Shown in pieces: positions 6,731-50,107 of a DNA stretch of 64,000 nucleotides. Origin of the DNA: Cyathus striatus (lineage: Eukaryota; Basidiomycota; Agaricomycetes; Agaricales; Nidulariaceae). Under the pieces are notes generated by a model. The model was not told where the DNA came from, did no database searches, and worked only from the letters and a program-made list of their open reading frames with translations. Every line of letters starts with the position of its first letter. The stretch's first letter is position 1. The translations under genes and the position numbers were made by a program. The stretch lies in the NCBI GenBank assembly GCA_025738555.1, contig JAOVFP010000018.1, positions 2,914,001 to 2,978,000 on the forward strand, read 5' to 3'.

Positions 6731-6838
6731 GGCTCTTAGAAACGCGTAATATGCAATTCAAATGTAAACATAGGCATTAAGTCTATCACATCACAGATTC
6801 ATATAAATAAACCTATATACGAAGTACATGGTATAGCA

Positions 6839-21900: not shown

Positions 21901-22099
21901 GAGCAAATCACTTCTACGCAGTAATAAAAGGACACACATCTGACTATAAAAGAAAGAGAGCGAAGGCACGGAAGAGCCATCAGTCCTCATTATCCGAGAA
22001 GGAAGAAACGAACGTACTTCTCTTCAACTTGCAACTGTTACAAGTCTTCCTTGCTATACTTCTGTTCGATGACCCCCCGCTAACCATAGTAGAACTCAT
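18952..22099 (-). CDS. Zn2Cys6 fungal transcription factor, paralogue 3
   Basis: Predicted 815 residues, 13 exons: 22099-22018, 21943-21938, 21869-21784, 21718-21699, 21644-21590, 21540-21166, 21111-20752, 20696-20470, 20416-20257, 20196-20085, 20032-19678, 19621-19082, 19021-18952. The zinc cluster is CNSCKLKRIRC then CLHC, again bridged by a 6-nt exon (21943-21938). The linker is KRRRPKGYIEELQDRIKELE. The central domain (YFEHVNLIMPLLHRPTFDRS, CDDEYWENEDPKKRFRQP) is close to the other two. The Ser/Thr/Pro-rich C-terminus ends in an EDWINFLGE motif. All exon lengths between the linker and the C-terminal exon equal those of paralogues 1 and 2 within a codon or two. The 5' part of this gene, with its promoter, was copied again at 23396-23861 and 36905-37125. 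Confidence 0.88.
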
Positions 22100-23861: not shown

Positions 23862-23869
23862 CGTTGAAG

Positions 23870-23912
23870 CGGGAGGGACGAAAACTGACACCATACACGG
23901 TGTAAATTTCAG
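23870..23912 (+). repeat. Left terminal inverted repeat of the 13-kb transposon
   Basis: It begins CGGGAGGGACG and matches the reverse complement of 36854-36896 apart from about seven substitutions. It is flanked outside by CGTTGAAG. Confidence 0.88.
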
Positions 23913-24049
23913 TTCGCGGATACAAAAAGCACCGGAAGAATGAACAGCCGCATCAAAATTTACACCGTGTAGCTTTCGAGCCAGAATAAATATGTTTTCT
24001 TTAATTACGTTTTCTCTAATTATGTAATAATCATTTTAAAAATGCGGGG

Positions 24050-24222
24050 TAAAAGTCATTACAAACTCAGGATATGTCCGTGACGATCCCGACAAGTACG
24101 TCAAGCATGTAGAAGAGATTATGTCCACTCAAGGATTAGGCTACATGGAGGCCAACAACAAGGTATGTATTGAGTTTTGTTGTGTAGTTTGTTGACGCTA
24201 GGACTTGGACTATCAATCCTAC
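24050..24222 (+). other. Short gene-like fragment left of the hAT element
   Basis: Bases 24069-24161 read without stops as YVRDDPDKYVKHVEEIMSTQ and then GLGYMEANN, followed by a good donor site (GTATGT at 24162). No further exon follows because the hAT element begins at 24223. It may be a captured host exon or part of an element gene that the hAT disrupted. I do not recognise the protein. Confidence 0.35.
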
Positions 24223-28466: not shown

Positions 28467-29344
28467 CGGGCCCTCACCATATTTACTAATAGATTAGTAA
28501 TACCTACTGTATATAGAAGTCTGGCAAAAATGGCCATAAACCAAAAATATAACTCACTCAGTTTTGAGAATTTTGACAAATGCTCTAGAGGATTTACTCA
28601 CATCATCAAAACAATCACTTTTACTAGAGGAATAAGAAAAAGAGGCATTCTAGCATGAGAAATTTTCATTGTACAAAACATCGCTAAATTCTGGAAGTTT
28701 TTATACAATCGTATATGGTAGTATAATTTGCCGTAAGTTGTGTGAATGGACCTAACATCTGTGTGAGATTATACTACCATATAATGGAGTACGTGGTAGC
28801 ACCAAACTTTATGAGTCTCTGTGCTGCTCAGAGAGAATCACAAAAGACTCATAATATAAAAATGACATGATGAGGGATAGAGAAGGTTATTACTCAATTA
28901 TAAATGCTTGTAGATCTGTGAGGTTAAGCATGAGTTTTATCCATGATGCTAGTGTGCATATACATTCACTGTGAGCTAATAGACATTGCGCACATTCACC
29001 ATAAGCTTATAGGAGTATTATACACTCACTATAAGCTAAAAGGTGTATTATGCAGTCGCTGTAAGCTGATATATAGTGTGAGCATGATAGGTAAGGTTGA
29101 AAGAGATTTACGATGAGTTCAGGAGCACATAAAACATGTATCATTTTGATACCTATCAAGAACACACATATACATTAACTATTAGCTATATACAATGTCC
29201 GGCCTTGAATTTTTAAACAACGTGAGTCTGCAATCAGGACGAAGCCCTCCTGGAGCTCATTCTTCAACTGTATCAGAGCGATCTTAGGAGCCCGGAGCCA
29301 ATGAGATTGATGGTGGAGAAAAGTGTCTCAGGCAGTGTAACATG
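28467..29344. other. Non-coding interior of the 13-kb transposon
   Basis: AT-rich sequence between the hAT end and the DUF6698-like gene. Short direct repeats containing ATAAGCT or GTAAGCT with ATTATACACTCACT-like spacing recur about every 35 bp between 28975 and 29065. No gene is recognised. Confidence 0.45.
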
Positions 29345-31000
29345 CTACTGGGTCTTGGGGTTATTGGCAGTGTGAGCCGCCAGTGCCTCAGCTGCCTCGC
29401 GTTCATGATGAATTCTCTGCTCTCGAAGCTTGTTCTTTGACTGTGTAAAGGTGTTCTTGGGAGCCGATGCAACTGATTGTGGGAAAATGTGTCTAAAAAG
29501 ATAAAAATCAGTAAAGATCACTGAGATAAAAGAATGCCTACATGTTCCACCATGACAATATGTTCTGAACATAGCTACAAGCTGTTGGAGTTGTAGACTC
29601 TTCAAAAAAGTTGACAATGAAGTCATAAAATGTGATGTAGTTGAAACCTTCCACCTCAGTCTGTAACCAACTATCTGCACTTGAGAAGGTGAAGTGTAGC
29701 TGTAAATATCATATAAGTATACATATTTGACTTGAAAATGATAACCACATACCTGAATGCAGACATATGCTATGGATCTTGTGGTCACCAACTTCATATT
29801 AATCAAGTTGGCCACGTCTGCCCGATTATGGCGCTTATTGAGCTTGCAGGTTTTGAAACCATGAGAATTCTCAATAGTGGAGTCAGCATCATGATAGATT
29901 GCGAACCCCTGTGTAGAGCTTGGGGAATTAAATAAATGCTGATATGCCTATGAAGGAATCAGCGATGATGTACTGTGGTAACAAATTGATCATGCACAGC
30001 AATAAGAAGTTCATTCTGCAGAAAACCTTGCTCAACATCATCTGGATTTCCTTTAAAATTATGGTACAGAAGCGGAATATAGAAGCTGGTGCCAAGTGAC
30101 ACATCAGGTTTGTCTCCAGCCCTGATACTTGCTCGGGTTCTATTAAGTACACATAAAATTGACATAAAATCAGTAAAATACAATGCTATATTGATAGAAA
30201 ATCGTACTCTTCATTATCCCAGTCCAGCTCAATAGGACAAAGGAGCTTCCCAATTATATCATGTTGAATTCCGTGGTTTTTTCGATTTCTGAGATTCAGA
30301 GCTGGAACAGGGTTGAGGTTGCCGTTATTGAGCCATTCTGCAACTGCAGCTGTCAGCACCAGAGTATCATGGGCCCTGGCATCATTCACCTTCTTTTCCA
30401 GCTACAATAACAAGAATGAGAGAGAGGAGAGATATATCATTCAAAAATTACCTCGAAAAAATAGGCCACACATTGAATATTATTGCAATTCCTAACGATC
30501 TTGTCAAAATCTGGAATAAGGTCATTTAAGATGTTAACGGCAGTGTGGTTACGCTCTCGTCTGCCCAAGATGTCACATGATCCATAAGCAAGTCATAACA
30601 AAGCAATGTTGATCAATGTACTCGTGTTTCATGACCATTACTTGCTCCTTGGATAGCTTCACGAGTGCTGTGTCCTCAAATCGTACCCTGCTATTGAGCG
30701 ATTTACTGTGCATTGTTGCATCAGCCTTCAAGTGGCTGATACTCAGATACAAGTGAACAAGATGACAGATGCCTCTTGCAGTAGGAGAGGCATCATCCCC
30801 ATTGAGTCTGCAGCAAGATAAGTAAGTATTCCTTGCTATATGTCAAGCACTTACCTCTTTCGTTTTCTAGATTGATATACATTCACCTGATCTTGCAACA
30901 CAGAGATCTCCCATTATAGTTCTTCTACATCTGATGGGAGTTGATCGGCACCTGCATTCTCGGAATTGGAATCACTAGAACTTGGCATGCTAGCCTTTCT
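29345..31000 (-). pseudogene. DUF6698-like protein, decayed companion gene
   Basis: Pieces in order along the minus strand match the Agaricomycete DUF6698 pattern. They are a coiled-coil start near 30980 (SDSNSENAGADQLPSDVEEL), LTAAVAEWLNNGNLNPVPAL then GIQHDIIGKLLCPIELDWD (30389-30186), RASIRAGDKPDVSLGTSFYI then GNPDDVEQGFLQNELLI (30130-30000), and NLINMKLVTTRSIAYVCIQ (29812-29757). The last piece is a WLQTEVEGFNYITFYDFI block ending WWNM (29680-29540). Introns separate them. A TAA interrupts the first exon just after VEEL, and other frames break around 30560-30620, so it is probably not functional. The gene is divergent from the transposase. DUF6698 has no known function that I am aware of; its place inside the repeats suggests it travels with the element. 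Confidence 0.65.
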
Positions 31001-31468
31001 GGAGTGGTGAGTACCGTGTTTGTTTCACATGTAACAGGAGACAAGAGGTACAATGCTATGTAAAAGGGTTACAAAGGGGAGGTGGTTTGGGAATTGGGAC
31101 CAAGGTACATTGCACTTTTTATTTCAAGCCCAACATTGAAATTAATAATGGACACCAGGCTACACCAAGGCGGGATGCATCGCAACCATGTATGTTAATA
31201 TTGATGGTCTAGTTTTTTGGTCTGGTGATCCACCTGTGCAATATAATGGTCTGCCCATGTCTGTTTGTGATGTGCCCATGTTCTCTGATGTGCCTGTACA
31301 GGTAGTCCAGCCCCTTGCTACATCATTACATGGCTAGGCTGCAGTCTGCTGCAACCTGTGTAGACTTTAAAGCTCAGACTGCAAATAGCAATGATGTAAT
31401 AGATATTCTTACTGCACTGGCTGCTTCCAATGCAAATTTTATTCTTACTTGCTTTAACTTCTCTTTTC

Positions 31469-34400
31469 ATGGCATTTACCTGCACACCCAACTGCTCTAA
31501 ACAGTTTGCGACATCATCAGCGATATGGAACCACCAAAATAAATGTAAGGTCTATCAAAAATACATATCAGGGGCCTTTCATATGTCCGAATCTTCGTCT
31601 GCTTCGAAGAAACATTTGCAGATTAAGAAAGCAAAGGTTCAGCAACTAGTTGCCTCACAAGTAAGCCTATTCATTTATGATGTCAATCCATATTGTTAAT
31701 AAGACATTGTTTGTAGTCAACAACTGCCGGGACAACACACATGGATGTTGATCCTGTCACCACTGCTCCAGAAGCTGTACCACACTCCATGCCACACTAA
31801 ACTTCCCCGCCTATTTGAATAACACAAATTGGTAGGGGTACACATCTGCCACGACAGTATAAAGATATACTTCCTGAGCCACCAATACCTTTAGAGCTGC
31901 AACCTCCACCTGAGCAGCTGCAGAGGATCCTCCCTCATGTTATTTTAATTGTTCATAATCGTTTGTGAACAATTATGAATACTTTTGGCATCTGGCATGA
32001 ATATCTATATTGCCCATCTCATGATCCTGATGTGTTTGTTTCCTCAGAAGATTTTATCACACATCCTTATGTCCCAGAATCTGCTGTGGAGCCTGAATTA
32101 GTACCAAATGTGTCACACATCCACATGAACAATAGTATATCAATGCTCATGGACTGGCAGAATACTGGAGGTGCTATGAAATTGAATGTCAAAATGGATC
32201 GACTCATAAACAAGGTTCTTTTAAATTCTAGTTTTCATGCAGTGGACTTGGCAGGGTTCTCTGCACATCATGAAAATCAACATAGTGACAAAGCTGACAA
32301 GAAGTCACCACTCCTTGACTCTTTCAATGAGACCAGTGTTCCCATTGAAGTACCTTCTGGAGACAAAAACATTCTGCCACAGACATTCTCCATACCAGGA
32401 CTTCATTTTCATAGTCTCCTCAGTGTCATTTGAGCAGGGTTCTCTGATCTGCTGGCATCCAAATTTCACTTTTCTCCCTACAAGCTATTCCACAGGTCGC
32501 CTACTACTGGCAATGATGAATGCTTATTTTCTGAGGTATATGATTCTGATGTTTTTATCAAAGAACATGACAAGGTGCAACAAGCTCCACTTCCACCTGA
32601 TGATCCAAACTGTAAATGAGAAAAGATTGTTGCTGCTCTGATGTTTTGGTCTGATGCAACTCACTTGGCTACATTTGGTAATGCCAAGCTCTGGCCAATT
32701 TACATGTTTTTTGGAAATCTCTCAAAGTACATTCGTTCACAGCCTTCTTCTGGTGCATGCCACCATATCGCATATATTCCCTCTATACAGGATTCTCTGC
32801 AAGACCTGCTGGCATTGTATCATGCAAAATGGGGTACACAGAAGAAAGCGATACTTACACATTGTCACCATGAGCTCATGCAGGCAGTTTGGCACATATT
32901 GCTTGATGATGAATTTATCCATGCTTACAAATATGGCATGGTGATAAAGTGTTTTGATGGCATAGAACAGCGTGTATATCCTTGAATTTTCACATATTCT
33001 GCTGATTACCCAGAGAAGTATGGTGTTTAGTTGTTTTTTATATGTGTACTTATAATTTCTGTGTAAGGGTGCTTTTAGCAACCATCCGAGATAAAGGGCT
33101 TTGCCCTTGTCCCCATTGTCTCATTCTGAAATCCAAGCTGGACCTAATGGGACTGGTACATGACATAAAACGTCATTTCAGCCAAGCACGAACATTTCTA
33201 AAGGATAGTGTGCTACAAAGCCGTGAATTCATCTATAAATTTGCACTTCCAATAGGTGGTACAGCTGTAGAAGGCCTACTTAAACCAACATCATCAGTGC
33301 TGACAATGGTAAGTTGCTTTGTCTAGAATTTAAATTCTTTCTTAACCTTATCAATTTTTATTAGAATGCATTTGTTGATAATATTGGAGATGACTTTAGT
33401 GTCTCGAAAATGCTAGTAGTTGATTTCATGCATGAGTTTGAGCTTGGTGTTTGGAAGGGCTTATTCACACACCTTATTTGACTTCTATATGCTGCTGCAC
33501 CTGATGGCTGCCTAGTATCCGAACTAGATCTCAGGCATGTTACTATTGTATTCATTTATGTTACCACTACTAATTTCCTATTAATTACTGTACTAGATTT
33601 CGAAAAATGCCAACCTTTGGGAAGGATACAATTTGCCAATTTGCAACTAATGCTTCAGAGATGAAAAAGCTAGCTGCTTGTGATTTTGAAGATTTACTTC
33701 AGGTGTGTGTTCCATAACTTCACCTATTGTTGTAAGTCAGTGACTTACTAGAAATAATGTAGTGTGCAATTCCAGCATTTGAAGGACTCTTAGAAGAACC
33801 ACATAATGGCCACCTCATGAAGCTTTTGTATCGTACTGCTGAATGGCATGCATTTGCAAAGCTTCGGCTTCACACAGATTCCACACTTGCACACCTGGAA
33901 CTTCTAACGAAAGAGTTTGGTCAATTGATGCGCAAATTCAGGGACCTTACATGCAATGAGTACTCTACTGTAGAGCTTCCCAAAGAAGCTGATGCTCGAA
34001 GTCGCCGGGGGCACACTCAGGTTGCTAGTAACCAAGGAAATTCCCACACACAGCCATTCACCAAAAAGCCATGGCACCTTAATTTGTTTACTTACAAATG
34101 GCATGTGTTAGGTGACTATGTTCACACCATTCATTTGTTTGGATCCACCGATTCATATTCCACTCAGCTTGTAAGTAGAATTGATGCATCTAATCAATAG
34201 TCTTGCATTACTCACTTGCAGATCTAGGGAGAACATTCTCATAGGGCTGTCAAATGCATGTACGGCTTAACAAACAAACGAAATGCTACAGCTCAGATCT
34301 GTAAACTCTACCATAGAAACATGAAAGCGCATGCAGCAAATTCCGAACAAGCATGTGCTGCCATTGGTCCAAATGAAGATTTCAATACACACATTGTGAT

Positions 34401-35527
34401 ATCTAAGTCATGCAACCACCCATTGGAATTATTTTCATTTGTTAGAGAACATACCAATGATCCTGCAGTAAAAGTATGTATTCAGAATCAAGTGGTACAA
34501 TTGGCAATAACTAAAATTATTGATGTTATATGTAGAACTTCATTCCAAAGCTTCAAGAACATGTACTCAGGTACCTACTTAATCGCTCATTCAATAGCAA
34601 TACATATGGCGAGTTTTCTGATGAAGATTGGAATACAGTTCATTTTTGTGGAAATAGGATTTATTCAGTTGATACTTGCTGAATTAACTACACTACATAT
34701 GATGTGCGACGCAGCCAAGATGTTGTTAATCCACACAATCATGCTGATGTCATGGTCTGTCCACCTGAAGATGTCAGGTGTTCACAGGACTATTGGTATG
34801 CGAGAGTGCTGGGGATTTTTCATGCCAATGTTTGGTGTGATCACGCTGATTTACATATAGATGATGCAGCAACAGTGCCAGCTACAATGGAGATTTCATT
34901 CCTATGGGTGCGTTGGTTCGGCGACGAGCCAGACTACGTATCTGGGTTCCATGAAGGAAAGCTTCCAAAAATAGGATTTGTTCCTTCAAGTGATCCCTAT
35001 GCATTTGGCTTCCTTGACCCTGCCCTCGTTGTTCAAGGTTCCCATCTCATCCCTGCTTTTACCAATGGATTCACACAAGAACTCCTTCCTGTCATCTCTT
35101 CACTGGGTCATAAAGCTCATGCCAAAGATGACTGGACAAACTTTTATGTTGGAATGTATGAAATTTTACATACATATGTCTCTACCTACTGACATGGTGT
35201 TATATTTACAGTTTTGTTGACCGAGACATGCTCATGCAACATTTTGGAGGTGGTATAGGCCATCTAACCAATGCCCCACCTGCAATACTGGATGAGCCTG
35301 TCATGAATCTTGCAGACGAGGAGGCAAATGAAACTGAATTTGAAGATTTCACAGCAGACAAGTCAGATGATTCAGATACTGAAATCAAACTGCTGGATGC
35401 AGAAGTAGGGGAATTTGAAGAGAATTCAGGTGATGTTCTCAAGGAGTGGCAGCTAGATGAGGGTGATGCTGAAAGTGAGGACAGTGGCAACTCAGATGAT
35501 GATGATGATGGGTATGCAAGCCTCTAA
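31469..35527 (+). pseudogene. Plavaka/KDZ-type transposase, inactivated by repeated CGA-to-TGA stops
   Basis: The N-terminal C2H2-like finger (CTPNCSKQFATSSAIWNHQNKC) begins at the ATG at 31469. Conserved Plavaka blocks follow: FHFSPYKLFHRSPTTGNDEC, MFWSDATHLATFGNAKLWPI, VLLATIRDKGLCPCPHCLI, MLVVDFMHEFELGVWKGLFT, TNASEMKKLAACDFEDLLQC, then GEHSHRAVK, INYTTYDVRRSQDVVNPHNH, DEPDYVSGFHEGKLP and RDMLMQHFGGGIGHL. The C-terminus is strongly acidic. Several introns are recognisable. At least seven in-frame stops interrupt it (for example at about 31798, 31824, 31966, 32431, 32617, 32983, 33479 and 34681). Nearly all are TGA at positions where arginine is expected. It therefore cannot encode a complete enzyme. 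Confidence 0.85.
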
Positions 35528-36853
35528 TTAGCAATATACTCAAAATACACTCCTTTCAACTTCAATCAGTGTTCCTTTGCACATATTTTAACGACGTCAT
35601 AATCAGTTACTTGAGGATAGCCAGCTGTGATGTATGACATCATACTCATACACTGTGTATAATATGCCAGTGAAATGATAACTAAGCACAATGAGTGAGA
35701 ACATTATGTGGAACTTGTACCTACTGATAATTCAAGTACAATATGTCAGTAAAATAATGATCACTACTTGATATGCCAGTCTCATTATATTGTAGTTATA
35801 ACCTGGTATGAGCGCTCGTAATAGCTTCATCACGTGAAGTTGAGCTCATAATAGATATAAGGATATATGAGGTTTTCACGAATTTAGCGATGAAGTTGTG
35901 GTGACTAAGTGATTCACACCATAGCTCATATGACACTGCTGCATGCGTGAAGTTGAATGAGGAGAAGGATTGCATTGAGAGAAAGAGAAGCAGGAGCTGG
36001 AAGGAGACGAATGACTTCTTAAGGGAGAGTACATGCCTTGCAGCAAGTTTCTTCGTATTTATCTCATCTTCTACATACAGGTACGACTGACTGTACCAGC
36101 CATTCTTCTCATGAAGAGTGCATCACAGGGCTTCTCCAGCCCCAAGGCCATACTCCATGGGACACCATTGGCCAGCACCCACCCCACCCTCTCACCATCC
36201 ACAATTCGACTCCGTAATTCACCAACCTCCCATTTCTAACATACCCAATGCCAGTCAATGTCTACTGCTTCTATGAACATACGTTCTCCGAGTCTCACAC
36301 CCACACCCGCCCCATCTACAAGACTGGGCTTTATGACATTGCAAATTGGCTTGTCATCTTCCTCGTTGTTCTCTGCATGTATTTTAGATGACGTAGCTTA
36401 AAGCAGAATGATGGTTGTAGAGCAGGCATTCTGTCTGTACCATAAAATCGGCCTCATGTTGGTTTTTATTAGTTCACTCATTTACAACATTCTGTACCTA
36501 TATAAGTACAGTAGTTTACTCTCGTTGAATACTAGGTTCCTTTCCCCCCCTTTCTCACTTCTCAACAAACCTCACTAGGACCTGAGGATAGACAGACATG
36601 CTATCCACTTGCAAGTTCTTTGTTCAAGAACTTCCTTCAACCGGGAATCTTCTTCCACATGGTGAAAGTGGGAAAGTGTCAGGGAAGCATCATTGTATGT
36701 CGTCCTTGAAATTTTCAGGTTTGTTTCTCATTATTTACCATATCTCATTATTTTCCTACACATTTTTAATCAAGTGTTATCTATGTAATTCTTTTAAGTA
36801 CCATGGGTAATTATATCTTGAGCTACATGGTGTATCCCTTACATGGTGTAAAG
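35528..36853. other. Right non-coding arm of the 13-kb transposon
   Basis: AT-rich sequence with no recognised gene. Near 35630-35790 a motif like GATATGCCAGT/ATATGTCAGTAAAAT recurs three to four times. Toward the right end the GGTGTAAA subterminal motif appears before the inverted repeat. Confidence 0.45.
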
Positions 36854-36896
36854 TGAAATTTACACTGTGTATGGTGTTAGTTTTCATACCTACCCG
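36854..36896 (-). repeat. Right terminal inverted repeat of the 13-kb transposon
   Basis: The reverse complement begins CGGGTAGGTATG and pairs with 23870-23912. It is followed by the 8-bp target duplicate CGTTGAAG at 36897-36904. Confidence 0.88.
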
Positions 36897-36904
36897 CGTT
36901 GAAG

Positions 36905-37125
36905 ATATAAAAGCTCCATTCTGTATCCCGTCTCGACATCTTAAATGCCTGATTACGAGATTGGTATGACCATCTACCCCGTCTCTACACAGGATTTAAC
37001 GAGTTTGTTGTGTATTTGCGGAAGAATAGCCAGTGCCGGTGAGATCTTGAGAGATGACTGAGGCTGGGCGCGGTGTACAAAGTGTTTGAGGATAGGCGGC
37101 ACAGCTGCCAGACTTTGCAATAATT
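36905..37125 (-). other. Displaced promoter half of the fourth transcription factor copy
   Basis: It is nearly identical to 22168-22360 upstream of paralogue 3, starting ATATAAAAGCTCC, and joins logically to 23861 across the transposon. This shows the duplication predates the insertion. No coding sequence. Confidence 0.8.
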
Positions 37126-37459
37126 AGCACGCTCAGTTGAACGTTGAGCTAAGTTTTATAGCCAAGTACCACTTAGTGAGGAGTGAATTCGGCAATTTCG
37201 GCAAAGATGATCGGAGCTTGAACTTTATATTAACGGATGATGTAGTCGCTCCACCTCCCCGAGTCTCAAGTTTCAACTCAACGTAAAGCTTGCCAATGCG
37301 ACGTTCTTGAGTGCTTTCTCTCTACTTTGCCTAACCACCTGCAAATCCTTGGGAAATATCACTCATATACTCATATATTAATCTGCATACAAAGGTAAAG
37401 AGAGTGTTTCATGCAATTGACAATTACTCATGACCAAGTACTAGTTTGCATTCAATACA

Positions 37460-38447
37460 ATGACCCACTCAGCATCGGAAAAACCCTCAGATGTTCAATT
37501 GTATGAATCGAATCAGAAATGGAGAGATGTACGCAATAAATACGCTGTATGTTATACTCACAGAGGATATCGGTTCTTGTCGCTAACAGAGACTACATGT
37601 GCTCGCAGTTCGGTGACAATACGGTGCTAAGGGATATGTATGAATACACCCTAGAGTACGCCAAGTTTGTAGGGCAACCAGATATGCCCTACAGTAGTTA
37701 TATTCAAACATGTGTGGAAAGTGTCGTAGCACTAGTAAGAGTGGTCGAACTTTCGAGGGTACGTGAGCCACTCTCTGTTCTGGAGTGCAGTAATTTACAT
37801 GAATCACTTCGTTTGTTTCTACAATAGCGAAATATTTTTCATAAGATAGCTACACGAGGTCGCCCTATTCTAGCAAGATTACAATTGATCGAGTCAACGT
37901 GCAAATTTCGAGGAGACATGACAATGTCCTCATACTGCGCTATACTAGATATCATGGGGTATGTCTTTAAATAGTATATGTATATATACGATTTTTGATT
38001 TTTTTCAGAGATTTTGATTATGCAAAAGATCTGGCGAACGAGATTTGGGAAGATGGCTGGGAGTCGCTGGAGAACCTCAACAACTCTCAACGTGAGCGCT
38101 TTAATGATCTTGTAGACAGGGTTACGATGCACGAATCAAATCTTACTGTAAGCTCTTTGTCCTCCTTCCATTTCTAACCCTTGTCTGATCCTTTTATTTT
38201 GTAGGAAGCTTCATTAACACAACTAGTTGCCCGGCCGATCATGAGAAGAAAACGTCTTGAAATTTATTCCAAAAAGAAGGATCTGGGATTCTGGGATATT
38301 AACAAGTGGAAGGTTTCCGAAAATGTGTTTTTTTTTCTGACACGGATTTCCCAAATATCGAACTCTATTTTTGCACGTCTTGTTCTTGGTGTTTTATTGT
38401 TCATCGCAGGTTTCATGATTTCCGATTACTTTAATAAGCAAGAATAA
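37460..38447 (+). CDS. Unrecognised tail-anchored helical protein, copy 1
   Basis: Predicted 249 residues in five exons: 37460-37546, 37609-37758, 37828-37958, 38009-38147, 38205-38447, all phase-consistent. I do not recognise the family. The body looks all-helical (VLRDMYEYTLEYAKFVGQ, SLENLNNSQRERFNDLVDRV) with a conserved PYSSYIQTC motif. The C-terminus ends with one hydrophobic helix (LVLGVLLFIAGFMISDYF) and four residues, typical of a tail anchor facing the cytosol. A paralogue with the same exon lengths lies at 42005-42887. The layout resembles small membrane-linked helical-bundle proteins such as cell-death or incompatibility effectors, but there is no motif to prove that. Confidence 0.65.
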
Positions 38448-39035
38448 AACTGTATTTATTACGACTCCTTCTCCTAGGTACATTATAATGAAAAATAATA
38501 TCCAGACACAGCAGACCGTCGACACCAATTGGACTTTGCCTTGAGATCACTGCAGCTTCTGGTTGAAACGGTGATCAAGAGAATTACGTCATTACGTCTG
38601 AATACAAGACTGGCGTTGAATCAGCTTGTCGTCGTTTCGGAAGCAAACCAATGTTGCTCGATGGTGACTCTACTGTGTAACTTTGGAGCTATTCTACTCA
38701 AGTTCAAGCTCAGGCTCAAGTATACGACCAATCTAGTGCATTCTCTTTGTCCGGCTTTTAAATTTTACGCAAACTAATGGTAGAAATGGATATGTGTGTA
38801 TCGGATGAATTACAAGTGGAAAGGTTGTTAAGCAAGGAAAGCAACAGTCTCGTCTCACGTCCTGCTCAGGTCGCTTATATTAATGCTCGTATTCCTTTTT
38901 AGAACTGAGTCACCATCGTGGGCGGATGATTCCTGGGCTGCTCACTCCGACCTGCCAGTTTTTCAGAAAGTAACTCTCCTTTCCTCCCCCACTACTACTA
39001 TCCCAAGGCTTCTGCACATTTACACTCCCAAAGAT
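38448..39035. other. Intergenic, no gene recognised
   Basis: It includes a short run of CTCAAGTTCAAGCTCAGGCT near 38695, similar in style to the CAAGTTCAAG repeats upstream of the transporter near 1160. Nothing else stands out. Confidence 0.4.
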
Positions 39036-41200
39036 ATGGCCAATCGAAGAAGTGAAAGGCTCGAAACAGTTGAACGAATCAACTACGGCGATTTAGGCAA
39101 GAGTTCCAGAGGTATAGTAAAAATATTCTAACGTCGGTGCATTTGTTCCTCACTACTAGCCCCTTCCCTCTCTTACGTAGGCCGCGCAAAGGTCAGCATC
39201 CTTATTCTCGTGTAGCTAGTTCCAGTGCTTATTTAAGGATAAGGGGAAGGAGAAGAAAGGTACTGTTAAATTGTTTACACATCTGTACTTCTCTCGCTTA
39301 TGAGCTTTATTATTATTATTATTCTCCCAGTCTCAGTCAGTGTATACCGCTCCCTGTGGCCTGTCCCTCTGCTCACCTACTTACAGCCATCACCATCAGA
39401 GGCTGAGGGCCCTAACGAGGATAAGGACCTCAGTGAAGATGTGTTTGGAGATATCGAGGAGCCAGCACCCGCTGCCAGTGTACTGCTTTATTCTTACAAG
39501 TTACAATTTCCAACTTACCTGACTACCGAAACCAGTCCAGTAACTCGCCCTTAAAATCATTATATCGCGGCGGTAAGAGCATGGTTCGAAACGTGAAAAA
39601 ATCCGGCAAACGCGCTAAGATGGCTGGTACTGTTGAAACTTGAATATCTCGATTTTGACGCTGACTCAGTGAAAAGTGAAAAAGGGACTCGCAGGAGAAA
39701 GTTATGATCAGGTAAACCCCTTTACTAGTAAGTAATCAGTGCGCGCATATACTGACTGACCCCCAGGCCGAAGAGGAGATGGAGCAGGCTCCAACAGAAA
39801 CTCCCAGAAAGGGGAGGGGAAGGTCTAGGGCAAGGAATGGTGCAGTGAGATTTATTCACTTTGCTCGTCTATGACTAACCCTCGGCTACGTATCCCTATT
39901 CCTTCCTACAGACGTTAGGGCCTGCGTGGTAACTACGGGTTCAATCCCGTACGGGATCATCCCTTTTCACAAAAATGCGAATATCTTCGTGGCGGCTTAA
40001 AATACCAATATGATACTTAGCATACAGGTATACAGACTATAGTAGTTCGTAATTCCGAAATTTCGTTGCACTGGGACTGTTTGGAGTGTTGGAAGGTACT
40101 GATTGAGCATACTGGTTCAATCCCTCACAGTTCCTTAATCCCACTGATTCTCACACTGGGCAGTTGTACATTTTAGATTGATTTTAGATGAACGACGTAT
40201 CGTACACTCACAACATTTTACATGTAGAAAGATAACTACTATTAATACATGCATGTAAAATATCGAGCTCATATCGTACGTCGTTGCAACGATATTCGCA
40301 TTTTTGTGAAAAGGGATGATCCCGTACGGGATAATATTTACTTGCTGTTGTATATTTGTGCCAGTGCACCACTCACTCAACGACAGAACGAACGCGAAAG
40401 TATCCAACACGGAAGTCAACAGCAACAAGTCGGAGACGAAGAACAGGATGAGCAGGAGGAGGAAGAGGAGGAGAGCCGTATTAGAAAAACGGACAAAGGA
40501 AAAGGGAAAGCTAGTATGGCGACAGGTACAACAGACTTATTCAAGCATCTGCTTGCTCGCTGATTAGAAGCCCTTTTCATCATTCAGACGAGGATGAAGT
40601 CAGCATACACCTTCTGTTGCTTAGTAGTCGGACCGCTTACCCGGCTAAGTATAGGACACGCAACGAGAAGAAGACTCGGAAGAATACCCAGAGGGACGCA
40701 CGGAGGAATACCCAGTGGCGGAAAGGCTGATGGAAAGGCCGGAGGAAGATCTGGAAGAAGAACCCGGATCATTGGATGACGTATGTCTGTCTTCCTCATT
40801 ATCACAATTGCCGCTTTGCTGATTGCCAACAACAGCAATCGTCTGCTCGAAAGGCCATTCATAAAACGGGAAGGAGGGCGAAGAAGGGAGCAAGCAAGGT
40901 GCGAAAGCCAATAGGTAACTACAAACCTTCTTTTCTCCGATATTTATGCTAATTCCAAGCTAATTCAAATCACAGGATATATCTTCCACCCCGACAGGTC
41001 TCGTAATCCTGAAGGATTTACACCCCTCGAAGTCACTCAGGTTTCTTAATTAGTCGGCTTGCACATATATTAACTGTCTTTATCATCTAGCCCGAGTTTG
41101 CTGAGGGTTCGAGGACGCTCCTAGAAAAAGACCGCGATGAATGGTTGAGATTAGTGGACGATTTTAACGTACGTCTAACAGACGGCACCATACCATAGTC
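39036..41200 (+). other. Possible multi-exon charged low-complexity gene, model unresolved
   Basis: Several stop-free stretches with plausible splice sites lie in one direction: MANRRSERLETVERINYGDL at 39036, an acidic stretch GPNEDKDLSEDVFGDIEEPA near 39409, QAPTETPRKGRGRSRARNG near 39789, EEQDEQEEEEEESRIRKTDK near 40438, EEYPVAERLMERPEEDLEEE near 40710, and EGSRTLLEKDRDEWLRLVDD near 41104. The composition alternates strongly basic and acidic blocks. The phases cannot all be reconciled, and a MITE-like element sits in the middle, so this may be a decayed or rearranged gene. No domain is recognised. Confidence 0.3.
39944..40332. mobile_element. MITE-like element with 42-bp perfect inverted repeats
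   Basis: Bases 39944-39985 and 40291-40332 are exact inverted copies (starting ATCCCGTACGGGATCATCCC), separated by about 305 bp with no coding capacity. The first 14 bases are themselves palindromic. No target duplication is visible in the flanks. The size and perfect ends fit a non-autonomous DNA element. Confidence 0.65.
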
Positions 41201-41219
41201 TAAGTTTACTGACTGACAT

Positions 41220-41470
41220 TGTACATATGAAGTTCCAAGTGTTGAAAAAGTCGCGTGCGCCGTAAATTGGTTGTGCCGTGTGCCGTACCTATACTGCATC
41301 ATTGGAATTGCTGGGTCTTCTTAATTCTTTTGGTGTATATACGAATGTAATATTTCCTACATAATATGAAGTGTTTTTGTCTTTATTATATGCAGTTTTT
41401 CCGTCTTTTTATACATTTTAGCACTTAAAAGCAAGTAATTCCCACGCTCCTCAGCCCCTCCGCTCACCAT
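41220..41470 (+). repeat. Left arm of an inverted duplication
   Basis: It resembles the reverse complement of 41868-42112; the outer 90 bp match best (starting TGTACATATGAAGTTCC). The arms are about 400 bp apart. The right arm holds the presumed promoter and first exon of the tail-anchored gene copy 2, so the left arm is an inverted partial copy of that 5' region. Confidence 0.65.
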
Positions 41471-41867
41471 TACTCACTGTCAAGCAGAGGACACAACTCA
41501 TAATTTACAAGTAAAGCTGTGATTAAGTGAGAGATAAAAGTTATTATATCACAAATTCAACGTAAAGAAGTTGAATGATAAACTATATTATTGAATTTTC
41601 GATATTGTAAGTATGATCCCCAGTCATTCATCGTTGCATACATGTGTTGGGATTGCATGATACTTACAACAACACATGGAAGAGTGATATTACAACTGAG
41701 GAGACCTAACATAAACGACTAGAACTATAGCTTAAACACATTTATGTGCCCAGTGTACTTTATGTATTATTATAATTTTACGACACTAAACCGCATTTTA
41801 TACATTGAAAAATGTAATATGTTTGAATCAACCTTTTTTCTGTAGATTCGGTACCTTTTCGGAAGGC

Positions 41868-42112
41868 TGAACAGTGCGCGGGGGAGCGTGGGAACTATCC
41901 TTCAGATGATAAAAACATAGCAAAAAGACAGAATACATCTCCTATAACAGTGTAAAAATGCATTGAATATAATATAATACACGTTGTAATCATAAATATA
42001 CAAAATGAGTAAGAAAATCAGCAATTCTAACGATACAGTGTGGATACGGCACACGGTACAACCGATTTACGGCGCGCACGACTTTTTCAACACTTGGAAC
42101 TTCATATGTACA
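41868..42112 (-). repeat. Right arm of the inverted duplication
   Basis: Partner of 41220-41470, diverged by substitutions and short indels (roughly 75-85% by eye, best at the outer end). It overlaps the first exon (42005-42055) of the neighbouring gene. Confidence 0.65.
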
Positions 42113-42887
42113 TGCTTATAGAGCGGAAAGAAGGTGGCCTTAGAAGCCGGTTACAATTCTATACTCGCTTTGGCGGACGTTATCGGGCAGACAGGCCAGC
42201 CTTACAGTAGCCCAATACAGGCCTGCTCAAATGCCGTAAGATCTTTAATTGAAACCAGTAGAGATGTTCGGGTATGTTTGTGGGTTGCGTATACTTCTGA
42301 TGTACACTTCAATTCTCTATGTGATAGAGCTCTCAAAAGGAGTTCCGCTTACTTGCCGTAAAGGGACGAAATGTGCTGCGAATATTACAGATGGTTGAGG
42401 AGGAATGTGTCAAACAAGGAATGATGACACCGTATCTCCAGTCCCATATCGAAGATACCACTGAGTAAGTTCCTCCTTCAATTTGAAATACAAATTCATT
42501 ACTTTGTTCTTCTCTAGTATTTATCGGCAAGTAGCTCGTGATGCCGATCGCGGGGAGCGTGTCGTACGCACAATATCTAAAGACCACCAAAATCGCCTCG
42601 ACACCCTCTGCCAGATGGTGGAAACAACAGAAACGCAGCTTGATGTAAGTAAGCTCCTTTAAGCTCTTGAATTTATATTAATTATCTACTTGTTATGTAC
42701 ATCATCTTTCTGTCTATGTAGCTCGCGGTGTCGTCTCAGGCGAACCACTGCGCTGGAAATTGCTAATCGACAACGTCAATGTTTCGACGAGCTTGACGAT
42801 CTCCGCCGTACAACTCGCAAAATATATATTATTGTTATTGCAATTTCAGTCGCTTTTATTTGGAATTGGTACTTTCACTCGAGATAA
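42005..42887 (+). CDS. Unrecognised tail-anchored helical protein, copy 2
   Basis: Paralogue of 37460-38447. Exons 42005-42055, 42122-42271, 42328-42464 and 42518-42644 fit in phase; the second is exactly 150 nt in both copies. Shared features are GQPYSSPIQAC (copy 1 has PYSSYIQTC), a VKGRNVLRILQMVEEECVKQ helix aligning with RGRPILARLQLIESTC, and a RTISKDHQNRLDTLCQ helix. The last exon is uncertain. A frame ending in IYIIVIAISVAFIWNWYFHSR at 42887 gives the expected tail anchor, but the obvious acceptor leads into another frame, so a frameshift or unusual splice may exist. Function unknown. Confidence 0.55.
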
Positions 42888-43635
42888 GCAGTTGTTAGGC
42901 TAATAATAGTTCGATTACCTTCGCAATACAGTGACTTCGTAGCCCTTTTTGAAAGAAATAATATTAATAGCTGTATATATATCTTGGTCCGGACTCTAAT
43001 TTCAGTGAGAACGTTATATATATACTTACTTCACTGTACTTAGTTACAGACTAAGACCTTTCCGACACCGCCAATGCCACCAAACCGTGAACTCGACCAC
43101 CAGCCCAACATCATTCCGCAAGTTTTGACACAAAAGTATCAAGTTTATTTTTCATTCTTGTCTGTTTCAGCTATTTTGTTATAAGTTATTACCTTCATTG
43201 AGACTGTCGTTTGTGATCCTGTAGTGTGTATTTAATTGCTTTACTCGGTATATATTCTGCTGTATTGTCTTTACAGCTCTCTAACCAAGTTTTATACCAT
43301 ATCTTACTCAAATTCTTTGTCCCTTACACTGTTTTGATGATTTCTTCTTAAGCTTACTCAGTTCTATGGTCTCGTCACCTGAGACCTCTCGTGTTTAATC
43401 TCATTATGTCGCAAGCTTTCCTTTTATCTGTCTAGCTTTGTCCGTCTCACCTCACATCAATACTAGAAGGAGAGGAAAATAATCTTGATGTAATCATGTA
43501 TCAAAATCTTCCTTCAAGTTGGATTCACTGGGTAGTTAGTAGTAGTGGACTCAAGACTCGAGAACAACTTATGAATGTGTCGAACACGAACAGATGCCTT
43601 ACTAATTACGTACTAATGCGGTATTCACCTCTCAA
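42888..43635. other. Intergenic, no gene recognised
   Basis: AT-rich, with no conserved coding frame and no visible repeat up to the border of the next element. Confidence 0.45.
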
Positions 43636-43885
43636 GGCAGGCTCCTAAAACCAGCCGTATCACTCGCTCGAATGGCCTACGTAGGATAAGATAAAGTGTA
43701 CAAACAAAGGACAAACAAATCTAAGAGGCCAAACTTACGAGTGAGCGGCTGGCAGATTTCGTTTCGGTCTCCTCGGAGACGTGACAAAACCTCACCAACA
43801 AGGTCCCAAGAAATACCTCGCTTATAATAAATACTGACTTCACACGAGAATAAAAATCATTTTGCATCAATGCATCAATTCTCAT
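43636..43885 (+). repeat. Left 250-bp terminal inverted repeat
   Basis: It matches the reverse complement of 49469-49719 almost base for base, with about four substitutions and two 1-bp indels seen by eye. Confidence 0.9.
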
Positions 43886-44123
43886 GTCAGGGCTCGGCTA
43901 GTTCCAAGACCCTGTTAGTAGCGATGGGGCACTTCAGTCTATTAATATATTTTGCCCATTCCTCTTGATAAGTATACTCACCGGTGCATTTCAAATAGAA
44001 CATTTCACTCATGCTACATCTGTTCACTGCTATATTTGATATGCATAGGTATAAAGTAAAGTTGACAATAGACATATTGCTTCCTTTCCTTCTCCCGCTT
44101 GTAACCCCTCACCATGAGTTCTA

Positions 44124-46921
44124 ATGAATCTCAGTGAGCCAACAGCAGTGCACAAACTGCTTGATTCACTTCAAGGCTGTGGATTAACACTACTAGATCT
44201 CATCAATGCAATACTAACTGTTCCAGCACTTCAAGAGCATGTAGTAGCCCAAAATTTCATTCACAATACAACCAATCTTTTGGATACACTCAACTCATCT
44301 TCAACAACTAGTAGTGTTGTGCAGGCCTGGACAAAAGATCAAGTTATATCTCTCTTTAAATCACAAGTCACTACTCTGTCAAAAAAGGAAACTGGGTTCC
44401 ACTTTACAGCTCGCAAAACTACAGAAAAGAAGCTTCATGAGTTCCAGATTGATGAAACTGCTATGCAGTTTAAATTGCTCGCACCAGATCTATGGCATCT
44501 AATTAAAAGTCTACTATCATCAAATGATGAATTAAACAAACGGAAGCATGTATGGTATGAATCTGTAACAAAGAAAAGGGAAACTAGCAATACCACAACT
44601 TCGGCTGGGGACTATGGTGATGGTGATATAAATATGCAAGATGTTGGCATATCAAATCCAATATCTGAAAACAATAAGGATTATTCATATTTTATTGAAG
44701 AAGGAGCTCCCATTGTCGAAGCCGGTGAAGATCAGCCAGAAGACATAGAAGAACAGAAAGAGATCAGATTTGAGTCTCTTACAACAATAGTAAGTATTCA
44801 TAGACTTTTAAAGATATTGCACAATAGTGCTAATAATATATGCTATTTCATAATTAAAGAAGGCAGTTGCTTGTATCAGCATTCTAATGCATAGCTCAAA
44901 TAACCACTGCAATGCTTTTCAATCACTTATGGGTGTATTTTTACACTCTGCAAATACACCAGAAACTGTGCAAGAACTTTTGGCAAGGCTTGGATTATCT
45001 ATATCTCCCAGCACAATAAATCAAGCTATCTCATCACTTTCGGAAACAGCAGAGATAAAGATCAAAGAAGTTGGAAAAACACTCCTAGCTTTGTATGCTT
45101 ATGATAATCTTGATATTGATCTGAAGCACTCGGTTCCAACAGTTGAAAAGCCACAAGCAACTCTTGTGCATCTTACTACTGGCACTATGCTCCCATTATC
45201 CCATAATATTAAATTAGAAGACCTTGATTACTCTGCACAACTGTGGAATAAGTCAAAGTTAAATTCGGATATTAGATCTCGAGACAGGCTGTTTATTAGT
45301 ATTCAAGATCTTGTTACACGCATACATCCTGAGATTGAAAATCACCCATCTGGGCTTGCACAACATGGGCGCTTCAACAAACATAGATTTTTGCATGATC
45401 TTGTACACTTTGGTCCAGAGTCATTTTGGAAATTTAAAAAGGATCTAGGTGAACCTGAATGGATTGAACATATCCCTGAAGAACAAACAACACAGGTACC
45501 ATTACATGGTTTAAATGTTAGCCCAAGCACTCCAGCCCAAAATGCAGAGGCTTTAGATTCCTTTTTCCACCAGACAGAAGTTGGAGATCCTAAAGATAAC
45601 AAAAGAGCACATGATACTAAAAACTTGGTGATTCTTGTCAGTGGAGATCTATTAACTGGCCAGCATGTTCGAAGTTTAATGCAGTCAAGATCTGAAGAGG
45701 ATACACCATGGCGCCGTTATCAATTTATAATATTTATCATGGGATTGTTCCACTTAAAAATGGCATGTGCTGATGCGATCTGGAAGATATTTCTTCATCC
45801 AAAAACATCTTGGTTGGATCGTACTAGTCTCTTGAACTGTGTCTTTCAGATACGGCCAAATGAAACTAATAAAATTGGAACAAATCCTGGGTTTCGAAGA
45901 ATGCATGAAGTCATACAACATGTTGGTATTGTCTCTCGCCTTAATGCTTGGCTCCTTGAAGTGAAAAAATTAAATTCTCAAATATCCACACTGGAAGACT
46001 TTGCAAAGACCAATCCTACATGGGATGATCTCGAAAATATTGCCCATACTCTTACTCTGGAATATGTTGCCAATAGTGAAATTGGTGATCTTCGCATGGA
46101 GCCCTCCAGTCTACGTGATGAGCAACATGAGAACATACTTATCCAACAGCAATACTTCCTTTTGTATGAAGAAATGTCATATGCACTTAACTATGGAGAT
46201 ATTGGACAAGTAGAGTCCTGTTTTATTCCCTGGATGTTTATATTTTTAGGTTGTGGAAAACATAAGTATGCTGCAGAAATGAAGCGGCATCTTGAAAATG
46301 TTCACTTCATCTATCCAAAGCCCCTAAGGTAAGTATAATACCCTAGCACTTCGATAATCTGCTTATTATTCTTCAGTCATGCAATCCGAATGAATATATT
46401 GTGCAATCCAACTGGAAAAAAAGGTCATTTCAGAGCGATTGACTGGGTTGTTGAGCATAACAACTTATATATTAAAGTTAGTACATTTAAATAATGTGAA
46501 ATTACTTACGGTTGGTTTCAATTTGTATATACAGCGTATCTATGGAGGAAAGTTTTCAAACCACCAGGTACAACGGATCTTAGATGAATCACCTCTAATA
46601 GAAGTGTACAAAAACACACGACTTCAATTTGAGAAGATGTTTTGTCTGGAGCATAAAACTACGCGACACTCACCACCAAATATGCATATGACATTTGAAA
46701 AGCTCGCAATGTACATGCAGAATGAAAAATTAAATGAAATTATTCCTGGACGGAAGTCAATGTACAATGTACCCGATGCAATGGGAAATGGGATGGACAA
46801 ATTAATGAAAAGTAAACTATGAGATGATGTTGATGAAGGGGATAATAGTGAAATGCTTGTTGAAGAGGAAGATTTAATTGATGACTATGAGGTAGAGGAT
46901 GATGGCAGCCTTGATATTTAG
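44124..46921 (+). CDS. DUF6589 protein, putative transposase, one late premature stop
   Basis: About 873 codons in four exons: 44124-44789, 44860-46328, 46377-46476, 46535-46921. Conserved blocks typical of the large Agaricomycete DUF6589 family are VACISILMHSSNNHCNAFQS, FIIFIMGLFHLKMACADAIW, PGFRRMHEVIQHVGIVSRLN, QQYFLLYEEMSYALNYGDIG, FLGCGKHKYAAEMKRHLENV and RAIDWVVEHNNLYIKRIYGG. Acidic residues in GDLLTGQ (D about 485), ACADAIW (D about 527) and GQVESC (E about 674) are spaced like an RNase-H-fold DDE catalytic set, but this is my inference. One TGA occurs near 46820 (KSKL-stop-DDVDEGD), removing an acidic 33-residue tail; CGA is the likely ancestor. The truncated protein might still work. 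Confidence 0.75.
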
Positions 46922-46940
46922 ATAGTATGTATCAGTATTT

Positions 46941-49314
46941 CTACTTTGTGTTTCTGAAAGTTGAGGTGTGCATAGATGTACTAGCGACGGGAGTGTTCTC
47001 ATTGGTGCCTTCATTTGTGTGTTGAAAGCGCTGCAGATGTGCTTTGATCTTCTTTGGACATGCACTATTGGCACCCATACAGAATAAGAAATGGCAAGTA
47101 TTCATTAAATCGAGTAAAACTTACTATTATGTCCAACCTGCCCACAGGCACTACATGTTATTGTTCCCCGTTTTCGTGTTGAAGGCTTTGTAGCTGGAGC
47201 AGGTGTATGGCAAGAAATGACATCGAATAGAGACGGTCCCACACCCTCCACCCAGTCTTTACTCCAACCTGTCTCCTTGAATATATGATCAACCGATGTT
47301 ATTTTTCCAGCATGCGTGCAATCTACAAGTCGCAAAATAATGGAATCTGAGATAAGCAACTTCGCACCAAAAGTGCGAACTGTAGCGGCACCAAATTTTT
47401 CGATGGCAGTTTTCCTTTGCCAATCAAAGAGTGCGGCTTTCAAATTGTGGTCAGCTGGTGTAGAATCATATGGCTTGACGTGTGATTTTGCACTTCCTTT
47501 CGTAGCCTTCATAAGTGGAACTCGAAACTGTTCAAACTTCTCCGGATGGCACTGGTCACAACACACTGTAGGAAGTTTTGGGCGGCAGCGAGTGCAGCCA
47601 GTAGCTTTTGTGTTGTCGCAAAGAATGTGGTCTTTTGTTGCTGAAACAATAGAGAAGTGAGCAACAATTGATGAATATTGAGTGTTCGAACATTAACTCA
47701 CAGGCCTTGTCATTCCCAAAATAGATCATGGGCACAATGCGGCGACAATTAAAGCCTATAATGGATGGATTGATGTAATCGTCCAATGGGCTTCCCACCT
47801 CAACATCCACACGCTGTTTTCTTTTCTTCCCCCCATCTTCCATCTCACCCCGGCTACCTGCCTTTGCATAGTGCAGTCTTCGTTCATTTTTCAAAATGTC
47901 AAGATTTATTACTGGTGGAGGTCTTTCATTCTCGTGTAGAGCCAGCAGTACATCTGGGATGGGTACTTCATTGTTTATATGGAGAGAGGTGCGGTCTTCC
48001 AGTACTCTTTGCTTAGATTGCCTTTCTGACTGAGAGGTTATTTTACGTTTTGCAGGTTTTGTCACCTGTGGTGCATCCGGTATCATCAAACTTCGGTTAT
48101 TGGCTATTTCCTTCGGTTCAACTAAAAGAATAGCTGTAGCTTCTTGTCCAGCACCACGTGCTGCACGCCCAAAGCGTTGCCATAGAGTACAGAGATTGCT
48201 TGTTGCCTGATATTGAACAACGATCTTGATACCTGGAAGGTCCATTCCCTGTAAAGAGTAATGGTATGTTGGTGTATCGAACAATTTATTTTTTAGATAA
48301 TATTCACTTACCATTCCAAAGGCATCTGTGCAGCAAAGTCCCCATAGATCGTCGTTCTTCAATTCCTTAACCCGATCTTCTCGATATGGGGTTGACATTG
48401 TTGAATGAAAATACTTTACTTTCTTGTGAAATGCTCGAGGTAAGAGTGATCGTAGGTATACACATGCTGATTCAGTATTCTTTGTACTGTCAAAGAATAC
48501 AATAAACTTTGGCGGAGGTGCACTTCCATTTTGCAAGCCATTTGGAATCAAGAATGAAAGGTCCTTGAAGCTATTTGCAGGGTACACGAGTGTGCATACC
48601 ATAAGACCAATCTCAGGACGATCATTTGAACGTAAGATAAATTCAGTCTGATCATCTTGGAGCTGGAGAATGTTGACAACTTCGTTTAGAACTGCCTTTG
48701 GTAGCGTAGCAGATGGGACATAAAAAGGAATTCGTGCTGGTACGCGATAACGCAGAGCCCCAAGGTTGAGGTACTGCTTCCTAAACGCTGCCCATTGGCT
48801 TACACAATGTCCTTCATCAATGATAAAGTTGAGTATGCGTCGTGTTACATGCTCCTTCTTCAGAAGCTCTTCAATGGCTGGATGATCCATTAAAATCTCG
48901 GGGTTTATGACAACTACTTTGTATTTCCCTAGTTCAATTTCCTAATATTATGTTAACTACAGTGCGCTAATATTGGGAAGAACAACAGACCTTGACAGTT
49001 AAAGAGTTCATACTCTCACGTGTTACTGAGATTGCTTCTATCCCCACTTTCTCCAATAGGGAGACATTCTGTTGTCCCAGTATATTCAATGGTGTAATGA
49101 TGAAAGTCATCTTATCACGCTTCTCTTCTGCTGCCATCAACAAGGGAATCCAAAATGTGAGAGTCTTCCCAGCACCTGTTGCAAGACATGCAACGACGTT
49201 CTTCCCCGCATACAGTGACATAGCAATCTTAATCTGTGTCCAGCACGGTCTTACTTGCAGCTTTGATTGGGTAAGTGCGCGCATATCAAGAACTGACCAC
49301 TGCCGTTGAGACAT
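46941..49314 (-). CDS. RecQ-like ATP-dependent DNA helicase with C-terminal zinc knuckle
   Basis: Superfamily 2 helicase expected to unwind DNA 3' to 5'. Exons: 49314-48991, 48941-48312, 48248-47702, 47640-about 47122, and a last exon ending at TAG 46941. Walker A is ATGAGKT (residues 45-51). The DEGH box is IIDEGHCVSQW (149-158), a RecQ hallmark. Motif III is PSATLP. Helicase C motifs are FFDSTKNTESACVYLR, CTDAFGMGMDLPGIKIVVQY and WQRFGRAARGAGQEA. A cysteine-rich region (GCTRCRP, CCDQC) follows, then a CCHC-type knuckle CSACGQVGHN completed in the last exon. The exact donor before that exon is unclear (GTAAGT gives the wrong phase, GTTTTA preserves the knuckle). No RQC or HRDC domain is recognised, unlike cellular RecQ. 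No premature stop was found. Confidence 0.82.
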
Positions 49315-49468
49315 TGATATCAGTCCGAGCGAGTGCTAACACGTGTCTTGTATTGCGCGTCGCAAATGCCTTGAGAATACACGAGGGCTTGAGAAAAGAA
49401 CCGCTAGCACGACTAAAATTGTGCGAGATGTCACCTTCCAAGTTTAGCAGACCCTGACCTATCCTGAT

Positions 49469-49719
49469 ATGAGAATTGATGCATTGATGAAAAACGATTT
49501 TTATTCTCGTGTGAAGTCAGGTATTTATTATAAGCGAGGTATTTCTCGGGACCTTGTTGGTGAGGTTTTGTCACGTCTCCGAGGAGACCGAAACGAAATC
49601 TGCCAGCCGCTCACTCGTAAGTTTGGCCTCTTAGATTTGTTTGTCCTTTGTTTGTACACTTTATCTTATCCTACGTAGGCCATTCGAGCGAGTGATACGG
49701 CTGGTTTTAGGAGCCTGCC
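49469..49719 (-). repeat. Right 251-bp terminal inverted repeat
   Basis: Partner of 43636-43885. Its outermost bases on the minus strand read GGCAGGCTCCTAAAACCAGC. Confidence 0.9.
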
Positions 49720-50107
49720 AACATGCCAAACCTTTGTGTGCTCAAGCTAAGTCCACGCGTTAAGTTCAACCGAAAAAGCCTTGCGATTGATCAAACCGAC
49801 TTTTCGACCGAACCATCGATCTTACTGAGACTCGGATGTTCGATGGTTATCACATCACTGGTCCCAAGAGTCCTTAGACCCCCGGAACTTCTTGTTTGTT
49901 TGTATGTATATACATACAGCTTGCCTTCTGTGCATAATATCTGCAAATATCGATGCTTCGAAACCGGGACGCGCTTTAATTTTTTTCAACAGCGTTCTAC
50001 TTCACATCTTGACTCTTTCCACTGTCATAATACCCTCTTAATCTATTTGTCCGTCTTTCAAAGAGTCTAAAAAGATCTTTTTACAGCTCTAACTTCCTGC
50101 TGGAATC
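49720..50107. other. Upstream region of the F-box gene at 50108
   Basis: No gene is recognised. The last 60 bp resemble the region just upstream of the relative at 61358 (shared CTACTGGAATCATG-type context), which supports the chosen start. Confidence 0.5.

What the first reader, a model, noticed from the sequence alone, without database searches (positions are those of the whole stretch)
43636..49719. A two-gene transposon pairing a DUF6589 protein with a RecQ-like helicase
Long (about 250 bp), nearly identical inverted repeats enclose exactly two convergent genes: a DUF6589 protein and a RecQ-type helicase with a zinc knuckle. I know of no characterised transposon class with this pair. DUF6589 has no assigned function, yet it sits where a transposase is expected and carries acidic residues spaced like a DDE set. 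The helicase resembles RecQ-type proteins often annotated in mushrooms, suggesting many of those may be transposon genes. The pairing suggests a replicative or peel-and-paste mechanism needing strand unwinding. The repeats are so alike that the insertion is probably recent.
Basis: partly seen in the sequence, partly recalled or inferred. Interest (0 to 1): 0.88.

Follow-up and report, generated by a model that had tools for sequence, protein, structure and literature searches.

The report
Helicase-carrying AcademH-type transposon in mushroom
A mushroom genome carries a two-gene jumping element that pairs a cut-and-paste enzyme of previously unassigned function with a RecQ-like helicase; it fits a known kind of fungal transposon, and two of its copies appear to have flipped the 47 kb of DNA between them.

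Summary
The element is real: 6,080 bp (43638-49717, two bases in from each stated end), ~255-bp terminal inverted repeats (TIRs), and two convergent genes. One encodes a DUF6589 protein, the other a RecQ-family helicase.

The pairing is general. Here 61 of 93 DUF6589 loci have a helicase match convergent within 10 kb (about 1.3 pairs expected by chance). It recurs in other Agaricomycetes.

Of 19 pairs of ends read, 16 have 9-bp target duplications (13 exact, three 8/9) and one 7/9. The other two, this copy and a near-identical inverted copy 47 kb upstream, have exchanged duplications: a flip of the 46.7 kb between them, real or in the assembly.

An AlphaFold2 model of a relative looks RNase-H-like; the 17 best-aligned chains are all DDE recombinases. 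The likely triad is D304 or D307, D485 and E674.

Helicase plus 9-bp duplications in a fungus match the published AcademH lineage, so this is a member of a known kind. Homology to a reference Academ transposase was not testable. The useful additions are the DUF6589 assignment (a full-text search for the name found no held paper) and the flip.

The parts
43638..49717 (.). Whole element, 6,080 bp
   Evidence: Ends set by comparison of copies, CAGGCTCC...GGAGCCTG
43638..43891 (+). Left terminal inverted repeat, DUF6589 side
   Evidence: termini
49463..49717 (-). Right terminal inverted repeat, helicase side
   Evidence: termini
44124..46822 (+). DUF6589 gene, the probable DDE transposase; exons 44124-44789, 44860-46328, 46377-46476, 46535-46822 (GT-AG junctions placed by eye); reading ends at a TGA, with an acidic stretch in the same frame after it
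   Evidence: fold of a relative
46941..49314 (-). RecQ-family helicase gene, convergent with the transposase gene; main reading frames 48967-49335, 47556-48941 and 47105-47692; exon junctions by eye, the last exon and the 46941 end tentative
43629..43637 (+). 9-mer left of the element; its reverse complement is the left 9-mer of the neighbour copy at C18:2904839-2910917
49718..49726 (+). 9-mer right of the element; its reverse complement is the right 9-mer of the neighbour copy
1..43637 (.). Part within the window of the 46.7-kb segment (C18:2910918-2957637) that appears flipped between the two copies
   Evidence: exchange of both 9-mers

Best explanation
The element is a DNA transposon of the AcademH lineage with both genes of an autonomous copy. 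The DUF6589 protein is an RNase-H-fold DDE transposase: it binds the ~255-bp inverted repeats, cuts at CAGGC...GCCTG ends and inserts with a 9-bp stagger, leaving a 9-bp duplication. The RecQ-family helicase, transcribed convergently, probably unwinds DNA at the ends or in the target during strand transfer or gap repair. Shortened copies with the same ends and 9-bp duplications are moved in trans. The window copy lost its matching duplication because recombination with a near-identical inverted copy 47 kb away flipped the segment between them (or the assembly did). Shown: ends, 9-bp duplications, gene pairing, predicted fold, exchanged 9-mers. Inferred: catalysis, cut-and-paste mode, the helicase's step, the cause of the flip.
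Confidence: 0.86

Rival explanations
1. A KolobokH transposon: a Kolobok-type transposase with a RecQ helicase, inserting at TTAA.
For: KolobokH also encodes a RecQ helicase and is reported only from fungi (passage in PMC9587614).
Against: Kolobok makes 4-bp TTAA duplications and has 5'-RR termini (passage); these elements make 9-bp duplications of varied sequence and begin CA or TA.
Confidence: 0.03
2. A separate, unnamed superfamily that resembles AcademH in carrying a helicase and making 9-bp duplications.
For: A DUF6589 profile matches no solved transposase by sequence (best of 8 rows E 0.18, none a transposase) and no held paper contains the name; homology to Academ could not be tested.
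Against: Helicase, duplication length and fungal host fit the published AcademH statements seen.
Confidence: 0.09
3. A local inverted or segmental duplication that merely encloses two genes.
For: The nearest full copy is in inverted orientation only 47 kb away, and the two right flanks share diverged stretches (seven pieces, 71-88% alike, from about 360-420 bp outward).
Against: The two elements are 99.95% alike and inverted, while the similar flank pieces are far more diverged, in the same orientation and do not reach the element; the left flanks show no match. Dispersed copies with their own 9-bp duplications exist.
Confidence: 0.02
4. For the exchanged duplications only: the transposase itself made the flip by acting on ends of two different copies.
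For: Such events are known from other DDE transposons (recalled, no call).
Against: Plain recombination between inverted copies 99.95% alike gives exactly the observed exchange with nothing added.
Confidence: 0.08

Closest known systems
AcademH lineage of Academ transposons (Kojima 2020, Mob DNA 11:15; not held, known here only through passages of citing papers)
   Same: DNA transposon encoding a helicase, 9- or 10-bp target duplications, present in Basidiomycota
   Different: DUF6589 is not named in any held paper; the citing paper calls AcademH low-copy while 93 DUF6589 loci of several families are found here; transposase homology untested
KolobokH
   Same: RecQ helicase in a fungal DDE transposon
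   Different: TTAA-specific 4-bp duplications against 9 bp here
AcademX
   Same: Academ superfamily
   Different: Nuclease instead of helicase, 3- or 4-bp duplications
Hermes (hAT), P element, Transib/RAG1, Tn5, ISCth4 transposases
   Same: Overall fold match of the model, which has a long helical stretch between strand 336-340 and the helix with the last acid
   Different: 8-12% identity in rows 1-17; no sequence-level match
RecQ-family helicases (E. coli RecQ, WRN, BLM, RECQ1)
   Same: Walker A, DEGH/DEAH box, QRFGRAARG motif, downstream cysteine cluster
   Different: C-terminal zinc knuckle in relatives; found beside a transposase gene

Membership tests
AcademH | Encodes a helicase | tested here: met
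   DEAD E 1.6e-23 and Helicase_C E 1e-16; TIGR00614 E 1e-44
AcademH | 9- or 10-bp target duplications | tested here: met
   16 of 19 pairs at 9 bp with at most one mismatch, a 17th 7/9; the other two exchanged theirs. The window copy itself has no matching pair
AcademH | Academ-type DDE transposase by sequence | not testable with these tools
   No reference Academ sequence at hand; defining paper not held
AcademH | Found in fungi including Basidiomycota | tested here: met
   The named relatives seen in the list for the DUF6589 protein are mushroom-forming fungi, best Hypsizygus and Lyophyllum; host itself unnamed
DDE transposases (RNase-H fold) | RNase-H-like fold of the transposase | tested here: met
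   Model of a 64%-identical relative, pLDDT 87; rows 1-17 all DDE recombinases; Foldseek best E 4e-3 only
DDE transposases (RNase-H fold) | Conserved D, D, E triad at the expected places | tested here: inconclusive
   D304/D307 in the first strand, D485 right after strand 304-308 of the model, E674 in model helix 492-508, each kept in at least 81 of 83 rows; no side-chain distances could be measured
KolobokH | TTAA 4-bp target duplication | tested here: not met
   9-bp duplications; definition from passage
RecQ helicase family | RecQ helicase core | tested here: met
   1oyw E. coli RecQ E 2.7e-27; TIGR00614 E 1e-44 but 152.8 bits against its cut-off 219.8

The most novel reading that the evidence does not exclude
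DUF6589 plus convergent RecQ elements are a separate superfamily, abundant across mushrooms, whose transposition depends on the helicase (for example to peel or replicate one strand) rather than simple cut-and-paste, and which is the source of most RecQ-annotated genes in Agaricomycetes.
Probability: 0.08. Interest if true: 0.75.

Novelty: new member of a known kind. Interest (0 to 1): 0.45.

Why it matters
It gives a probable function to a large 'unknown' Pfam family (DUF6589) and warns that many mushroom genes annotated as RecQ-type helicases may belong to transposons. The family, with near-identical copies, clean 9-bp duplications and deletion derivatives, is a practical system for asking why a transposon carries its own helicase. 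The exchanged duplications show a simple way to read a transposon-borne flip from a single assembly.

Tried and rejected

Literature: 'DUF6589' in 0 papers; 'AcademH' in 7: passages with content seen in two (PMC10799480, PMC10045372), only reference-list entries in three (PMC8290104, PMC12210899, PMC9970103), two not opened (their titles are on chest CT and human retroviruses). One search listed 20 of 54 papers; of these I opened PMC12730594 (0 occurrences of Academ), PMC9587614 and PMC10045372. 'Academ superfamily' with helicase: 1 paper; 'Academ-H' or Agaricomycetes: 10 of 3,420 listed, none of the ten with Academ-H; 'Academ transposons' with DDE: 0; RecQ, helicase, TIR, basidiomycete and transposase: 1, on Helitrons, not opened; Academ, RecQ, transposon and fungi: 3, one of them (PMC3627910) not opened.

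Full report
Anatomy. The stated repeats exist. Comparison with other copies moves each end inward by two bases: most copies start CAGGCTCC and finish GGAGCCTG, so the element is 43638-49717, 6,080 bp. The GG and CC that seemed to extend the repeat are flank. Inside are two convergent genes: DUF6589 on + (PF20231, E 6e-67) and a DEAD/Helicase_C helicase on -; the other open frames of 80 codons or more listed inside the element overlap these on the opposite strand or in another frame. The helicase is of the RecQ family (E. coli RecQ 1oyw, E 2.7e-27; TIGR00614, E 1e-44 though below that model's own cut-off). In an alignment of the window helicase with 35 of the 120 listed relatives, the helicase motifs, a downstream cysteine cluster (C486, C506, C514, C517, C525, C526 in at least 33 of 36 rows) and a C-terminal knuckle (C661, C664, H669 in at least 34 of 36 rows) are conserved. 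The knuckle passes the Pfam cut-off as zf-CCHC_6 in 3 of 4 relatives scanned. In the window copy it scores only E 0.19, and the last exon is not settled.

Copies and duplications. The genome (107 Mb, 24 contigs) gave 40 TIR matches, from 40 scored of 122 candidates. In the loci fetched by then, 19 pairs of ends with the strict terminal motif could be read (two of them came from the pattern search, where 6 of 8 fetched loci gave none). Three single ends without a partner (C11:509429, C16:2283636, C4:965300) were dropped. Of the 19, thirteen have an exact 9-bp duplication, three 8 of 9, one 7 of 9, and two none. No exact match occurs at 4-8 or 10-13 bp, and 0 of 342 mispaired flanks pass at 9 bp. 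At 3 bp two pairs match exactly, which chance allows (52 of 342 mispaired flanks pass at 3 bp with one mismatch). A 1,345-bp copy at C20:150937-152281 is an internal-deletion derivative of the window's family: its two parts match both ends of the window element at 94%. Two further families with different termini (TAGTCC, TAGTCT) and TIRs of about 307 and 450 bp have the same convergent two-gene layout; 2 of 4 and 1 of 2 of their copies read show 9-bp duplications, and the three without do not exchange 9-mers with the copies read.

The exchanged duplications. The window copy and the copy at C18:2904839-2910917, in opposite orientation, differ at 3 positions in 6,080. Neither has a matching pair of 9-mers, but the left 9-mer of one is the exact reverse complement of the left 9-mer of the other, and the same holds for the right ones. 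No other two of the 19 pairs do this. That is what a flip of the 46.7 kb between two inverted copies leaves behind. It may be a true inversion by recombination or a flip in the assembly; no reads were available. A check of 1.5 kb on each side found no similarity of the left flanks, but seven diverged similar pieces (71-88%) between the two right flanks, in the same orientation and starting about 360-420 bp out. They look like members of a local gene family and do not explain 9-mers that are reverse complements of each other at the element edges, but they mean that the two sites are not wholly unrelated. The differences between left and right TIR of the window copy are shared with the other copy, so they predate both insertions and do not date this one; the 3 differences between copies do suggest recent spread.

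The pairing. The genome gave 105 DUF6589 matches (102 scored of 201 candidates) and 102 matches to one open frame of the window helicase (92 scored of 171); both are lower bounds. Merged, 93 DUF6589 loci and 76 helicase loci remain. Sixty-one DUF6589 loci have a convergent helicase within 10 kb (median gap between matched stretches 1.8 kb), one has it in another orientation, 31 have none; about 1.3 pairs are expected by chance. Fifteen of the 76 helicase loci have no DUF6589 partner by this rule. In other species, 26 of the 120 listed DUF6589 relatives (of 396 found) are on contigs of exactly the same length as contigs holding one of the 120 listed helicase relatives (of 187 found); nine shifted lengths give 0 or 1. 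By the names in the two lists, 25 of the 26 agree in organism and one is an unnamed metagenome contig; two of the 26 share one contig. On long contigs this does not show closeness. Six pairs have neighbouring or near-neighbouring locus tags, for example H0H92_004012/004013 and QCA50_004608/004609. One gene model carries both domains in one protein.

What is known. A passage in PMC10045372 says AcademH generates 9- or 10-bp duplications and AcademX 3 or 4 bp, and links this to helicase against nuclease. Passages of PMC10799480 report AcademH as low-copy in Basidiomycota, Ascomycota and Mucoromycota and count DEAD and Helicase_C among the domains of AcademH, KolobokH or Helitron. Passages of PMC9587614 describe KolobokH with a RecQ helicase in fungi and Kolobok's TTAA duplications. 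The defining AcademH paper is not held. So transposons that pair a transposase with such a helicase are known. Whether the AcademH paper itself deals with DUF6589 could not be checked; no held paper contains the name.

Mechanism. Shown: ends, duplications, pairing, predicted fold, derivatives with the same ends. Inferred: DDE catalysis, movement of derivatives in trans, cut-and-paste as the default, helicase unwinding at ends or during repair. Nothing found speaks for a replicative mode.

Noticed in passing
window 11500-23700: Three tandem segments spaced about 3.8-4.2 kb (for example 11580, 15816, 19644; matched stretches mostly 63-88% alike) look like a local gene-family expansion.
   Followed up: no
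window 22913-23394: Tandem array of a 57-bp unit, 8.5 copies.
   Followed up: no
window 108-872 (-), 50239-50715 (+): Two reading frames with visibly similar protein stretches, one inside and one outside the flipped segment; no Pfam match for either.
   Followed up: no
window 50137-51091 and C18:2911274-2912270: Diverged similar stretches (seven pieces, 71-88%) in the right flanks of both full copies, same orientation; probably the same local gene family.
   Followed up: partly
window 9271-10686 (+) and 54460-55794 (-): An F-box-like reading frame and a membrane transport protein (PF03547) reading frame.
   Followed up: no
L073 (C14:151930-157871) and C13 copy with ends in L078 and L079: DUF6589+helicase copies without matching 9-mers and not exchanged with the other copies read; they may have recombined with copies not read.
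   Followed up: partly
P0241: A Paramarasmius palmivorus gene model with DUF6589 and helicase domains on one strand in one protein, unlike the convergent layout here.
   Followed up: partly
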